DNA of 64,000 nt, from contig NZ_CP041244.1 in assembly GCF_006547145.1 (NCBI RefSeq), forward strand, positions 992,001 through 1,056,000, written 5' to 3'. This document shows, one piece after another, positions 43,093 to 46,823 of this stretch; the stretch's first letter is position 1; the number at the start of each line of letters is the position of its first letter. A model generated the notes under the pieces. It did not search any database, had not been told where the DNA came from, and worked only from the letters and a program-made list of their open reading frames with translations. This DNA comes from Actinomadura sp. WMMA1423. GTDB taxonomy: Bacteria > Actinomycetota > Actinomycetes > Streptosporangiales > Streptosporangiaceae. The position numbers and the translations under genes are program-made.

Positions 43093-45078
43093 TCAGACCT
43101 GCGCGCGGGACCGCACGGCCTCGACGATCTCCTCGACCGCCTCGTCGATCGGGACCCCGTTCTTCTGCTCGCCGCCGCGGTAGCGGAACGACACCGCGTC
43201 CTTGGCCACGTCGTCGTCGCCCGCGAGGAGCATGTACGGGACCTTCTGCTTCTGCGCGTTGCGGATCTTCTTCTGCATCCGGTCGGAGGAGGCGTCCACC
43301 TCCACGCGGATGCCGTGCTCGCGCAGCCGCGCCGCGACCTTCTCCAGGTGCGGGACGTGGGCGTCGCCGATCGGGATGCCGACCGCCTGGACCGGCGCCA
43401 GCCACGGCGGCATCGCGCCCGCGTAGTGCTCGAGCAGCACGCCGAAGAACCGCTCGATCGACCCGAACAGCGCCCGGTGCAGCATCATGGGCCGCCGGCG
43501 GGTGCCGTCGGCGGCCTGGTACTCCAGGCCGAACCGCTCGGGCTGGTTGGGGTCGACCTGGATGGTGGACAGCTGCCAGGTGCGCCCGATCGCGTCCTTG
43601 GCCTGCACGGAGATCTTGGGGCCGTAGAACGCCGCGCCGCCCGGGTCGGGGACGAGGTCGAGCCCGGTGGACTCGGCGGCGTCGCGGAGCGCGGCGGTGG
43701 CCTTCTCCCACATCTCGTCCGAGCCGATGAACTTGTCGGACTCGTCGCGGGTCGACAGCTCCAGGTAGAACTCGTCCAGGCCGTAGTCGCGCAGCAGGCC
43801 GAGGACGAAGTCGAGGAGCCGCTTGATCTCCTCGCCCATCTGGTCCTCGGTGCAGTAGATGTGGGCGTCGTCCTGGGTCATGCCGCGCACGCGGGTGAGG
43901 CCGTGCACGACGCCCGACTTCTCGTACCGGTACACCGACCCGAACTCGAACAGCCGGAGCGGCAGCTCGCGGTAGGACCGGCCGCGCGCCCGGTAGATCA
44001 GGTTGTGCATCGGGCAGTTCATCGGCTTGAGGTAGTAGTCGCCGCCGTCGACCTCCATGGCCGGGAACATGTCGTCCTTGTACCAGCCGAGGTGCCCGGA
44101 GGTCTCGAACAGGTGGCCCTTGGTGATGTGGGGGGTGTTGACGAACTCGTACCCCTCCTCCTCGTGCCTGCGGCGGGAGTAGTCCTCCATCACCTTGCGG
44201 ACGGCGCCGCCCTTCGGGTGGAAGACGGCGAGGCCGCTGCCGATCTCGTTCGGGAACGAGAACAGGTCGAGCTCGGCGCCGAGCCTGCGGTGGTCGCGCT
44301 TCTCGGCCTCCTCCAGGAACCTGAGGTACTCGTCCTGCTTCTCGCGGGACTCCCAGGCGGTGCCGTAGATCCGCTGGAGCTGCGGGTTCTTCTCGCTGCC
44401 GCGCCAGTAGGCGCCGCCCGAGCGCATCAGCTTGAACGCGGGGATGACCCGGGTGGACGGCAGGTGCGGGCCGCGGCACAGGTCCTTCCAGCGGAGCTCG
44501 CCGGACTTGGCGTCGAGGTTGTCGTAGATGGTCAGCTCGCCGCCGCCCACCTCGACCTCGGCGCCGTCGGCGGCCTCGTCCACCGGGCCGGAGCCCTTCA
44601 GGCCGATCAGCTCCAGCTTGTAGGGCTCCCCGGCCAGCTCGGCGCGCGCGTCCTCGTCCGAGACGGGCCGGCGGGAGAACCGCTGCCCCTGCTTGACGAT
44701 CTCGCGCATCCGCTTCTCAATGCGCTTGAGGTCGTCGGGGGTGAACGGCTCGGGGACGTCGAAGTCGTAGTAGAAGCCGTTCTCCACCGGCGGCCCGATG
44801 CCGAGCCTGGCCTCCGGGAACAGCTCCTGGACGGCCTGCGCCATCACGTGCGCGGCCGAGTGCCGCATGATCGCCCGGCCGTCGTCGGAACCGATCTCGA
44901 CCGGCTCCACGGCGTCGCCGTCGCGCAGCTCGCCGGCGAGGTCGCGCAGCTCGCCGTTGACGCGGGCCGCGACCACGGTCCGGCCGTCGGCCTCCAGTGC
45001 CTGCCCCGCGGTGGTGCCCGCCGGCACCGCCCGCTCGCTCCCGTCGAGGGTGATGCGCAGCTCAGACACGGTGGACAC
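43093..45078 (-). CDS. thrS: Threonyl-tRNA synthetase
   Basis: Class II synthetase charging tRNA-Thr, with TGS and editing domains ([21 protein letters not shown]) in front of the catalytic core ([11 protein letters not shown] with zinc Cys, [20 protein letters not shown] in part) and a C-terminal anticodon domain. The product is 661 aa from the GTG at 45078, chosen because GAGGAG lies 5 nt upstream; an ATG at 45162 would read through part of the leader. Expression is predicted to be controlled by the threonine attenuator upstream. Confidence 0.95.
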
Positions 45079-45208
45079 GGGTACTCCTCGCGATGGTGGT
45101 TCGGGATCAGCGGGCTTCGATGCTATCGACTCGGGGTGTGCCCCGGACGCGTCCGGCTCCATCGGCCGCTCCTCTCGGTCGGCGGAGGGCCCGCGGCGTC
45201 CCCGGACG

Positions 45209-45247
45209 GCGGAAGGGCCCCGGGGATCGCTCCCGGGGCCCTTCCGC
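45209..45247 (-). terminator. Attenuator terminator hairpin of the thrS leader
   Basis: On the minus strand GCGGAAGGGCCCCGGG pairs perfectly over 16 bp with its complement around the loop AGCGATC. It begins 9 bp after the leader-peptide stop and ends about 130 bp before the thrS start. The end of the 5' arm plus loop (CCGGGAG) can instead pair with CTCCCGG inside the leader ORF, giving an antiterminator. Confidence 0.85.
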
Positions 45248-45255
45248 GTGCAATG

Positions 45256-45321
45256 TCAGGACATGCCGCCGTCGCGCCGGGAGTGACCCGGCGTCGTCGT
45301 CTGTACGAGCGCGTGCGGCAT
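45256..45321 (-). CDS. Threonine-rich leader peptide of thrS (attenuation)
   Basis: A 21-codon frame starts MPHALVQTTTPGHSRRD and contains three consecutive ACG threonine codons at 8-10. A hairpin (CGCCGGG-TCACT-CCCGGCG) overlaps the third Thr codon and the codons after it. A ribosome stalled for lack of Thr-tRNA would cover its first arm and free CTCCCGG to pair with the terminator's CCGGGAG. This is the classic ribosome-mediated attenuator layout. The ATG is 6 nt after a TACAGT box, so the mRNA is probably leaderless. Confidence 0.8.
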   Translation of the reverse strand: MPHALVQTTTPGHSRRDGGMS

Positions 45322-45327
45322 GTGTCC

Positions 45328-45333
45328 ACTGTA
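45328..45333 (-). promoter_or_regulatory. -10 box of the thrS leader transcript
   Basis: TACAGT (minus strand) is followed by GGACAC and then the leader-peptide ATG, placing transcription start at or next to the start codon. Confidence 0.6.
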
Positions 45334-45362: not shown

Positions 45363-46823
45363 TCACGCCCGGGCCCTCGGGGCGCCGAGATCGTCCATGT
45401 CCTCGAGCTCGCGGCCCTTGGTCTCCGGGACGGCCCGGAAGACGAACAGGAACGCCAGGACCGAGAACAGCGTGTAGAGGCCGTAGGCCAGGCCGAGGGA
45501 GAACCCCGAGATGCCGGGGAACGTCGTGGTGATCACCCAGTTGGCGATCCACTGCGCGGCGGCGGCGACGGCCAGGGCGGACGCGCGGATGAAGTTGTTG
45601 AACATCTCGCCGAGCATGACCCACACCACCGGCCCCCACGTCGCGGCGAAGGAGGCGACGAACACGTTGGCCGCCACGAGCGCCACGGGACCGGCGACGG
45701 CGCCGAGGCTCGGCTCGCCGTCCACCACGGGGGCGGTCGCGAAGCAGGCCGTCAGGGTGCCGAGGGAGACCGCCATGCCGGCGGCGCCGGCCAGCAGCAG
45801 CGGGCGCCGCCCGACCCGGTCGACCAGGGCGATGGCGACCAGCGTGAACACCACGTTGACGATCGAGTTGATCACCGAGGTGAGCATCGCGTCGCTCTCG
45901 GAGAACCCGACCGCCTGCCACAGGGAGGAGGAGTAGTAGAAGATCACGTTGATGCCGACGAACTGCTGGAACACCGACAGCAGGATCCCGGCCCACACGA
46001 TCGGCAGCAGCCCGAACCGGTTCCCGCGCAGGTCCTTCAGCCGCACCGGCCGGTCCTCGGCGATGGACCGCGCGATCCCGTCGATCTTCACGTCCACGTC
46101 CGCGTCGGCGCCCCCCATCACGCGCCGCAGCACCTGCCGCGCGCGGGCCGTCTCGCGCTTCTTGACCAGGTAGCGGGGCGACTCGGGGATCATGGTGGCG
46201 ATCACGCCGTACAGCACGGCCGGGACGACGGCGCTGGCGAACATCCACCGCCACGCCGCCCCGCCCCACGGGAACGCGCCGGTCGCGCCGCCGTCCGACA
46301 CCTGCGCGATGACGAAGTCGACGACGAGGGCGGCGAAGATGCCGAGGACGATGGCCATCTGCTGCAGCGAGCCGAGCCGCCCGCGCAGTTCGGCCGGGGC
46401 GATCTCGGCGATGTAGGCGGGCGCGATCACCGAGGCGGCGCCGATGGCGAGGCCGCCGACCAGCCGCCAGGCGGTGAGGTCGACGGCGCTGAAGGCCAGC
46501 GCGGAGCCGAGCGAGCTGACCACGAACAGCGCGGCGGCGATGAGCATCACCCGCACCCGGCCGATCCGGTCGCTCAGCGGCCCCGCGAACCAGGCGCCGG
46601 CCGCGCAGCCGAGCAGCGCGGCGGACACGACGAAGCCGACCGCGAAGCCGCCGAGGCCGAACTGCTCCTTGAGCGCGTCGACCGTCCCGTTGATCACCGA
46701 GGAGTCGTAGCCGAAGAGGAATCCGCCGAGGGCCGCGGCCCCCGCCAGCAGCGCCGCCACCGCCGCGGAGTGGGACGGCCCCTCCTCCCGCCGCTCTTCC
46801 ACCTGCCCGCTGCCCGCTGTCAT
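45363..46823 (-). CDS. Sugar-porter MFS transporter
   Basis: The 486-aa, 12-helix major facilitator has the sugar-porter signatures FGYDSSVINGT (helix 1), DRIGR in loop 2-3, PESPRYLVKK after helix 6, DRVGRRPLL in loop 8-9 and the C-terminal PETKGRELED. It probably imports a hexose or pentose with protons; the sugar cannot be told from sequence. ATG at 46823 gives a normal N-terminus. A GC-rich palindrome lies just after its stop, ahead of the thrS leader promoter. Confidence 0.9.
   Translation of the reverse strand: MTAGSGQVEERREEGPSHSAAVAALLAGAAALGGFLFGYDSSVINGTVDALKEQFGLGGFAVGFVVSAALLGCAAGAWFAGPLSDRIGRVRVMLIAAALFVVSSLGSALAFSAVDLTAWRLVGGLAIGAASVIAPAYIAEIAPAELRGRLGSLQQMAIVLGIFAALVVDFVIAQVSDGGATGAFPWGGAAWRWMFASAVVPAVLYGVIATMIPESPRYLVKKRETARARQVLRRVMGGADADVDVKIDGIARSIAEDRPVRLKDLRGNRFGLLPIVWAGILLSVFQQFVGINVIFYYSSSLWQAVGFSESDAMLTSVINSIVNVVFTLVAIALVDRVGRRPLLLAGAAGMAVSLGTLTACFATAPVVDGEPSLGAVAGPVALVAANVFVASFAATWGPVVWVMLGEMFNNFIRASALAVAAAAQWIANWVITTTFPGISGFSLGLAYGLYTLFSVLAFLFVFRAVPETKGRELEDMDDLGAPRARA

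What the first reader, a model, noticed from the sequence alone, without database searches (positions are those of the whole stretch)
45209..45333. Threonine attenuator with a leaderless leader peptide controlling thrS
Seen directly: a TACAGT box, 6 nt later an ATG opening a 21-codon frame with three consecutive ACG (Thr) codons, a 7-bp pause hairpin overlapping the last Thr codon, a 7-nt CTCCCGG that can pair with CCGGGAG at the terminator's upstream arm, and a 16-bp perfect terminator stem before thrS. All four parts of a ribosome-mediated attenuator fit together. Bacillus-type thrS control uses a T-box and E. coli uses ThrS autorepression, so this is a different solution. I do not know of it being described for this group.
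Basis: partly seen in the sequence, partly recalled or inferred. Interest (0 to 1): 0.85.

Follow-up and report, generated by a model that had tools for sequence, protein, structure and literature searches.

The report
Threonine-sensing RNA switch controlling thrS
In Actinomadura-type bacteria a tiny leader gene with a run of threonine codons, followed by a strong RNA hairpin, sits just before the gene for the enzyme that loads threonine onto its tRNA, and it is predicted to switch that gene on when charged threonine tRNA runs short.

Summary
In detail: box, 21-codon frame with ACG ACG ACG, small hairpin, CTCCCGG/CCGGGAG match and 16-bp stem all lie upstream of thrS. The leader stands in 36 of 36 same-genus thrS loci read directly; a covariance model hits all 65 same-genus genomes listed. 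Thr run (three in 35 of 36, two in one), frame and hairpins are kept; the terminator base shows compensatory changes. Ribosome-mediated attenuation is the best reading (about 0.8); no transcript data were available. Corrections: a leaderless thrL before thrS was published for Streptomyces lividans in 2021; its peptide matches a second leader class that I find before a shorter ThrRS paralogue, thrS2, in other actinobacteria. The window's hairpin has no U-tract, and the 7-bp antiterminator shrinks to 5 bp in 13 of 36 loci. A second promoter-like box lies between attenuator and thrS, and an upstream in-frame start could give a longer ThrRS from read-through RNA. As far as tested, the leader on full-length thrS and possession of thrS2 nearly exclude each other: a known kind of switch on another paralogue.

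The parts
45328..45333 (-). P1: -10-like box TACAGT, 6 nt before the leader ATG; no -35 consensus
   Evidence: TANNNT before the start was a search condition and was met in 36 of 36 same-genus loci, at 6-7 nt; TCGG conserved before the box, no -35 motif
45256..45321 (-). thrL: leader frame MPHALVQTTTPGHSRRDGGMS*, predicted leaderless
   Evidence: frame kept in 36 of 36 same-genus loci
45292..45300 (-). Three consecutive Thr codons ACG ACG ACG (proposed control codons)
   Evidence: three in 35 of 36, two in the other
45276..45292 (-). Hairpin 1:2 (pause / anti-antiterminator), GCCGGG-UCACU-CCCGGC
   Evidence: six of the consensus fold's seven pairs kept in 36 of 36, the seventh in 35
45259..45327 (-). 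Outer helix: leader start pairs with leader end around hairpin 1:2
   Evidence: in 57 leaders own start/end pairs bind better than mixed ones, 0 of 5000 permutations as good (relatedness inflates this)
45277..45283 (-). Region 2 CTCCCGG, proposed antiterminator 5' strand
45230..45236 (-). Region 3 CCGGGAG, proposed antiterminator 3' strand, top of terminator 5' arm
   Evidence: Invariant in 36 of 36
45209..45247 (-). Terminator-like hairpin, 16-bp perfect stem, 7-nt loop, no U-tract
   Evidence: compensatory changes at the stem base
45160..45162 (-). Upstream in-frame ATG with AGGAG (45173-45169): possible long ThrRS start, +28 aa
   Evidence: present in 27 of 36 same-genus loci, in frame in all 27
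45120..45125 (-). P2: internal -10-like box TAGCAT, inside the possible N-terminal extension
   Evidence: TA(G/C)(C/G)AT there in 49 of 56 loci with a thrS-class leader
43093..45078 (-). thrS (short start GTG 45078, GAGGAG 45089-45084), full-length threonyl-tRNA synthetase with SAD domain

Best explanation
The 45333-45209 element is a 21-codon leader frame with three Thr codons and a strong hairpin directly upstream of thrS, found in all 36 same-genus thrS loci read, and it likely works as a ribosome-mediated attenuator that would raise thrS transcription when charged tRNA-Thr is scarce. Proposed steps: RNA starts at or next to the leader ATG (inferred from box and spacing) and a ribosome translates the leader. 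With enough Thr-tRNA it would run to the stop codon and cover region 2, the hairpin 3:4 would form and transcription would stop before thrS. With too little Thr-tRNA it would stall on the ACG run and keep 1:2 open; region 2 could pair with region 3 as soon as that is made, and RNA polymerase would get past before the hairpin refolds. Shown: sequence, conservation, computed folds. Inferred: transcript start, stalling, termination, response to threonine. P2 would give a basal supply in most species; in L085, L086 and L094 no TANNNT box lies between hairpin and thrS, so there thrS would depend on read-through.
For: Leader frame, box and Thr run in 36 of 36 same-genus loci. Model R1 hits all 65 same-genus genomes listed (thrS context read for 36 of them); in the own 9.5-Mb genome the hit at thrS has 126.1 bits, the next 29.8, which is the same hairpin on the other strand. 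Of 40 hits read from 39 of the 137 outside-genus genomes with a hit, 38 lie before a ThrRS gene (20 full-length thrS, 18 thrS2), 1 before another gene, 1 is no leader. In the Thr run ACC replaces ACG in L097, L114-L116, L189, L190, L194, L195, while the block after it (CCGGCG) is read in one frame before thrS (mostly ..R-R) and in another before thrS2 (P-A-R), so RNA and not peptide is kept there. Terminator base: three pairs with changes on both sides in 15, 13 and 16 of 36 sequences, broken or gapped in 9, 5 and 1; CCGGGAG invariant. With a ribosome modelled on Thr codon 1 or 2, the second half of the leader pairs with region 3 before region 4 is made in 56 of 56 thrS-class and 23 of 23 thrS2-class leaders; at the stop codon in none, which follows from the masking. 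No Rfam family, hence no T-box, at gathering score. Precedent: S. lividans thrL, reported from RNA-seq as leaderless (PMC8079986, passages).
Against: No U-tract after the window's stem: 1 T in 9 nt, no terminator called; 19 of 36 loci, window not among them, have a T run of 3 or more at the stem end. Pairing 2:3 beats shuffles weakly: window p = 0.065, thrS class 17 of 56 with p <= 0.05, thrS2 class 18 of 23; only 5 bp in 13 of 36; no covariation, since region 3 never varies in the 36. Once region 4 is made the terminator wins at equilibrium even with a stalled ribosome, in 55 of 56 and 20-21 of 23, so read-through has to be kinetic. Pairing 2:3 also forms with no ribosome in 36 of 56 (4 of 23). 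P2 lies downstream and could bypass control. The upstream sugar-porter gene is kept in all 36 loci. No transcript, term-seq or threonine data were available.
Confidence: 0.8

Rival explanations
1. The leader is a real threonine sensor, but the output is not intrinsic termination: a translating ribosome would shield or expose a Rho site or an RNase site, or the hairpin would act on RNA stability.
For: No T run of 3 or more at the stem end in 17 of 36 loci, the window included; no terminator called; S. lividans thrL is likewise reported with one hairpin and no U-rich stretch (PMC8079986, passages).
Against: The stem base is kept by compensatory changes, and 19 of 36 loci have a T run of 3 or more at the stem end.
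Confidence: 0.12
2. The leader senses its nascent peptide or general translation stress (as the uORF reported before wblC) and not Thr-tRNA.
For: In the genus the peptide is conserved beyond the Thr run (TTTPG..RR).
Against: The conserved block after the Thr run is read in different frames in the two leader classes; the gene downstream is the cognate synthetase in 38 of 40 outside-genus hits read.
Confidence: 0.05
3. The hairpin is just the terminator of the upstream sugar-porter gene, and the frame is chance.
For: That gene lies upstream on the same strand (NCBIfam TIGR00879) in all 36 same-genus loci, so gene order does not separate the two ideas within the genus.
Against: Box, frame and Thr run between the two are kept in 36 of 36; the same layout stands before thrS2; control loci give no such frame.
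Confidence: 0.03

Closest known systems
Streptomyces lividans thrL / thrS (SLIV_19412 / SLIV_19410), PMC8079986
   Same: Leaderless short frame with adjacent Thr codons and a hairpin before a ThrRS gene; peptide MKRVRPFLETTPGFVPAR shares Thr-Thr-Pro-Gly
   Different: Two Thr codons, and the MKR...TTP...VPAR form that I find only before the short paralogue thrS2; the window leader has TTTPG..RR and stands before full-length thrS. That SLIV_19410 is thrS2 is inferred, not looked up.
trpS2 and leuS attenuators of Streptomyces (PMC1262725, passages)
   Same: Classical leader-peptide attenuators before synthetase genes in actinobacteria
   Different: Other amino acids; that 2005 survey reports no conserved RNA structure at threonine operons and does not name thrS
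pheST attenuator of gamma-proteobacteria (named in PMC1262725; details recalled)
   Same: Ribosome-mediated attenuation of a synthetase operon
   Different: Phe codons, U-tract terminator, leader with ribosome site (recalled)
T-box leader of Bacillus thrS (recalled)
   Same: Raises thrS when tRNA-Thr is uncharged
   Different: Direct tRNA binding, no leader peptide; no Rfam match in the window

Membership tests
Ribosome-mediated transcription attenuator | Short leader frame with a run of codons for the cognate amino acid | tested here: met
   ACG ACG ACG in window; three in 35 of 36, two in the other
Ribosome-mediated transcription attenuator | Cognate gene directly downstream | tested here: met
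   thrS, TIGR00418; 38 of 40 outside-genus model hits read lie before a ThrRS gene
Ribosome-mediated transcription attenuator | Mutually exclusive pause, antiterminator and terminator pairings | tested here: inconclusive
   All three can form; 2:3 is only a little better than shuffles and shows no covariation
Ribosome-mediated transcription attenuator | Intrinsic terminator with U-tract | tested here: not met
   16-bp stem, 1 T in 9 nt after it; so the claim is 'works like' until termination is shown
Ribosome-mediated transcription attenuator | Read-through depends on aminoacyl-tRNA level | not testable with these tools
   Needs expression data
S. lividans thrL type (MKR...TTP...VPAR, thrS2 class) | Peptide signature and thrS2 paralogue downstream | tested here: not met
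   Window peptide ends SRRDGGMS; gene is full-length thrS with SAD domain; no thrS2 in G000 at E <= 1e-115
T-box leader | Match to the Rfam T-box model | tested here: not met
   No Rfam family at gathering score in the window
E. coli type ThrRS autorepression | tRNA-like operator overlapping the ribosome site | not tested
   No operator search made

The most novel reading that the evidence does not exclude
A threonine attenuator changed owner: in much of the family it controls thrS2, a short ThrRS without the SAD domain, but in the Actinomadura clade thrS2 was lost and the switch now stands in front of the ancestral promoter of the full-length housekeeping thrS. There, read-through RNA carries an extra upstream start, so threonine starvation makes not only more ThrRS but an N-terminally longer form of it.
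Probability: 0.33. Interest if true: 0.7.

Novelty: new variant of a known kind. Interest (0 to 1): 0.55.

Why it matters
It gives a genus-wide, directly testable answer to how a clade of actinobacteria may adjust its full-length ThrRS, ties the single thrL report I found to a two-class family of leaders, and offers a natural case in which the same kind of switch stands on one paralogue or the other but hardly ever on both. The tandem promoter and in-frame second start suggest two protein forms whose ratio would report on threonine supply.

Tried and rejected
Streptomyces full-length thrS loci were scanned for the published ETTPG leader and none was found; the likely explanation is the paralogue thrS2. 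Codon-position test of the N-terminal extension: a first run showed no third-position excess, but it wrongly held L085 and L086, which have no extension; without them (13 sequences of 84 nt) third positions vary more (0.275 against 0.138 and 0.152 before P2; 0.204 against 0.138 and 0.108 overall), p = 0.018 by Wilcoxon and 0.012 by relabelling within codons. The sequences are related, so this is modest support for translation; the odds of the novel case were moved from 0.30 to 0.33 for it. A conserved mini-frame before Streptomyces thrS was looked for and not found. Pairing of the terminator loop with the stretch before the ribosome site is above single-base shuffles in thrS2-class (13 of 23 with p < 0.05) and other thrS-class loci (13 of 21) but not in the window's genus (3 of 36), so it is no part of the claim. 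Reciprocal model R2, from 21 of 23 thrS2-class leaders (L200 and L204 left out as over-long cuts), puts same-genus leaders in the first 23 places of 553 kb, but the 24th, a non-leader, has 22.2 bits against 22.7; common descent of the two classes is likely, not shown. Alignment A1 has 36 rows; WIN, L001 and L002 were dropped as duplicates of L081, L089, L094. L205 was left out of the folding counts but is among the 57. In some searches region 2 was taken wider than CTCCCGG: from the small hairpin's 3' arm to the stop codon (78), or from the ribosome edge to the start of region 3 (79). The stem finder failed on L089 (5 bp). Searches for a thrS attenuator in this group; of what they listed and I looked into, only PMC8079986 reports a thrS leader.

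Full report
WHAT IS THERE. On the minus strand, between a sugar-porter gene (TIGR00879; stop at 45363) and thrS (TIGR00418), lie: TACAGT 45333-45328; six bases; ATG 45321 opening MPHALVQTTTPGHSRRDGGMS*; three ACG codons 45300-45292; hairpin GCCGGG/CCCGGC 45292-45276; and a perfect 16-bp stem 45247-45209 with a 7-nt loop. CTCCCGG (45283-45277) matches CCGGGAG (45236-45230). The 134-nt region folds at -82.4 kcal/mol, z = -6.07 against shuffles. In a strict scan it is the only leaderless-like short frame in the window; 61 control loci give 13 such frames, none with two adjacent Thr codons.

CONSERVATION. I read thrS upstream regions of 36 same-genus genomes (G000-G035). The genus is Actinomadura, inferred because the leader regions of L089 and L094 are identical to those of the named loci L001 and L002. 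All 36 carry box, 6-7 nt, ATG or GTG, and a frame with TTTPG or, in L095, TTAPG. Three adjacent Thr codons stand in 35, two in L095. Among 80 genome-contig loci only L001 and L002 have it; L064, L075 and L076 held no upstream sequence, and a few others less than 350 nt (L019, L027, L043, L044, L059, L070). Of 14 loci fetched from other genera none has it; one (L121) was too short to judge. Model R1, built from the 36, hits 202 of 341 family genomes at E <= 0.001, among them all 65 same-genus genomes listed. The 139 genomes without a match are listed only in part (20); that part starts with other genera, and since such lists begin with the genus (compare) I take it that no same-genus genome lacks the hit. 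The thrS context was read for 36 of the 65. In the own genome the hit at thrS scores 126.1 bits, the next 29.8.

CODING AND RNA CONSTRAINT. Within the Thr run changes are mostly synonymous (ACC for ACG in L097, L114-L116, L189, L190, L194, L195; ACA in L179). Exceptions are L095 (Thr-Thr-Ala), L187 and L143 (Thr-Arg-Thr) and L188 (Thr-Ser-Thr). After the run, the block CCGGCG is conserved in both leader classes but read in different frames: mostly ..R-R before thrS, P-A-R before thrS2. That points to selection on RNA, not peptide. In the terminator base three pairs show changes on both sides in 15, 13 and 16 of 36 sequences and are broken or gapped in 9, 5 and 1. The leader start pairs with the leader end; in 57 thrS-class leaders each start fits its own end better than others' ends (mean -19.58 against -18.08 kcal/mol; 0 of 5000 permutations as good; relatedness inflates this). 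In 23 thrS2-class leaders there is no such effect (4730 of 5000 as good; these ends hardly vary).

MECHANISM. With a ribosome modelled with Thr codon 1 or 2 in the A site and 11 nt beyond that codon covered, the second half of the leader pairs with region 3 before region 4 exists in 56 of 56 thrS-class and 23 of 23 thrS2-class leaders; with the third Thr codon in 55 and 22; with the ribosome at the stop codon in none, which follows from masking. Weak points: this pairing is only a little better than shuffles (window p = 0.065; 17 of 56 and 18 of 23 with p <= 0.05); the CTCCCGG match is 7 bp in 19 of 36 plus 2 with a G-U pair, 6 in 2, 5 in 13; after region 4 is made the terminator wins at equilibrium in 55 of 56 and 20-21 of 23; with no ribosome 2:3 also forms in 36 of 56 and 4 of 23. 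The window's stem lacks a U-tract; 19 of 36 loci have a T run of 3 or more at the stem end. So ribosome-mediated attenuation is the best reading, but termination and its kinetics are inferred.

TWO LEADER CLASSES. Some genomes hold a second ThrRS, here called thrS2. The one examined (L145) is 405 aa, TIGR00418 433.5 bits, with class II core and anticodon domains but no SAD domain, unlike the window's thrS. thrS2 upstream regions carry box, 6-7 nt, a leader of the form M(K/Q/E)RA..TTTP(E/D)..PAR* (Thr-Arg-Thr in L143) and a hairpin. R1, trained on thrS-class leaders only, ranks 5 of 5 such leaders directly after the window in 409 kb (38.0-53.8 bits; best non-leader 35.3). Of 40 R1 hits read from 39 of 137 outside-genus genomes with a hit, 20 precede full-length thrS, 18 thrS2, one (L205) a ferric-reductase-like frame (named by eye), one (L214) is a plain hairpin. 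Outside the family R1 is sparse: 39 of 296 genomes of the class at E <= 1e-4, 15 of them in the family; of three of its new loci looked at, two have a thrS2-class peptide and one (L227) none by my filter. thrS2 is found in 125 of 341 family genomes at E <= 1e-115; within the genus only in G027, where it looks split and has its own leader. None of the nine other genera with a confirmed thrS-class leader (g24-g28, g35, g69, g84, g85) is among the thrS2 holders. The converse was tested little: the thrS of thrS2 holders G056 and G037 has no leader, that of G027 has one. Thus leader on thrS and possession of thrS2 nearly exclude each other as far as tested; copies below the cut-off could be missed, and many genomes have neither.

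SECOND PROMOTER AND SECOND START. Between hairpin and thrS lies TAGCAT (45125-45120), 47 nt before the GTG start. The 11 loci without leader printed show a TANNNT box near the start as well, so P2 is probably the ancestral thrS promoter (inference). In the window, and in 27 of 36 same-genus loci, an ATG with a ribosome site lies upstream of P2 in frame with thrS (here 45162, +28 aa). Over 56 thrS-class loci 44 have such a start, 41 in frame without stops, 3 (L185-L187) out of frame. In 13 extensions of equal length third codon positions vary more than first and second (p about 0.01-0.02; a first, flawed run had shown nothing). The idea that read-through RNA makes a longer ThrRS is open but has some support. 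L085, L086 and L094 have neither long start nor any TANNNT after the hairpin; L097 has no long start and only TACCCT.

PRIOR WORK. PMC8079986 (passages seen) reports for S. lividans TK24 a leaderless thrL, MKRVRPFLETTPGFVPAR, before thrS, with one hairpin and no U-rich stretch. Its form fits the thrS2 class (inference). PMC1262725 (passages) reports synthetase attenuators for trpS and leuS in Streptomyces and no conserved structures at threonine operons. PMC7157823 (passages) lists thrS2 in the S. coelicolor WblC regulon. PMC2965389 (passages) does not name thrS. Nine searches listed no report that I could recognise as one for Actinomadura or for the full-length thrS; the library lacks most subscription journals.

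VERDICT. Real, conserved, and best read as a threonine attenuator of a known kind in a new setting: another peptide class, on the housekeeping paralogue, with a second promoter and start behind it.

Noticed in passing
L177, L180, L181, L184, L186, L189, L191-L195, L196, L197, L200, L206-L210, L212, L213, L216 (downstream of the hairpin): The terminator loop and part of its 5' arm are complementary (8-10 bp) to a stretch just before the ribosome site, with different letters in the two leader classes; perhaps a pseudoknot or a read-through hairpin. Not seen above chance in the window's genus.
   Followed up: partly
L205:205-326: A thrS-class leader (MAYGHASTTTPGVPRRDAA*) with hairpin upstream of a ferric-reductase-like frame (named by eye) and not of a ThrRS gene, in a fragmented assembly of 790 contigs.
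   Followed up: partly
45162-45076: Upstream start with ribosome site, in frame with thrS, and promoter-like box inside the extension; kept in most of the genus.
   Followed up: yes
L144, L147 (G027): The one same-genus genome with thrS2 also has a thrS2-class leader there; the gene appears as two overlapping fragments, so it may be frameshifted.
   Followed up: no
L185-L187: Here the upstream start before thrS is out of frame with it.
   Followed up: no
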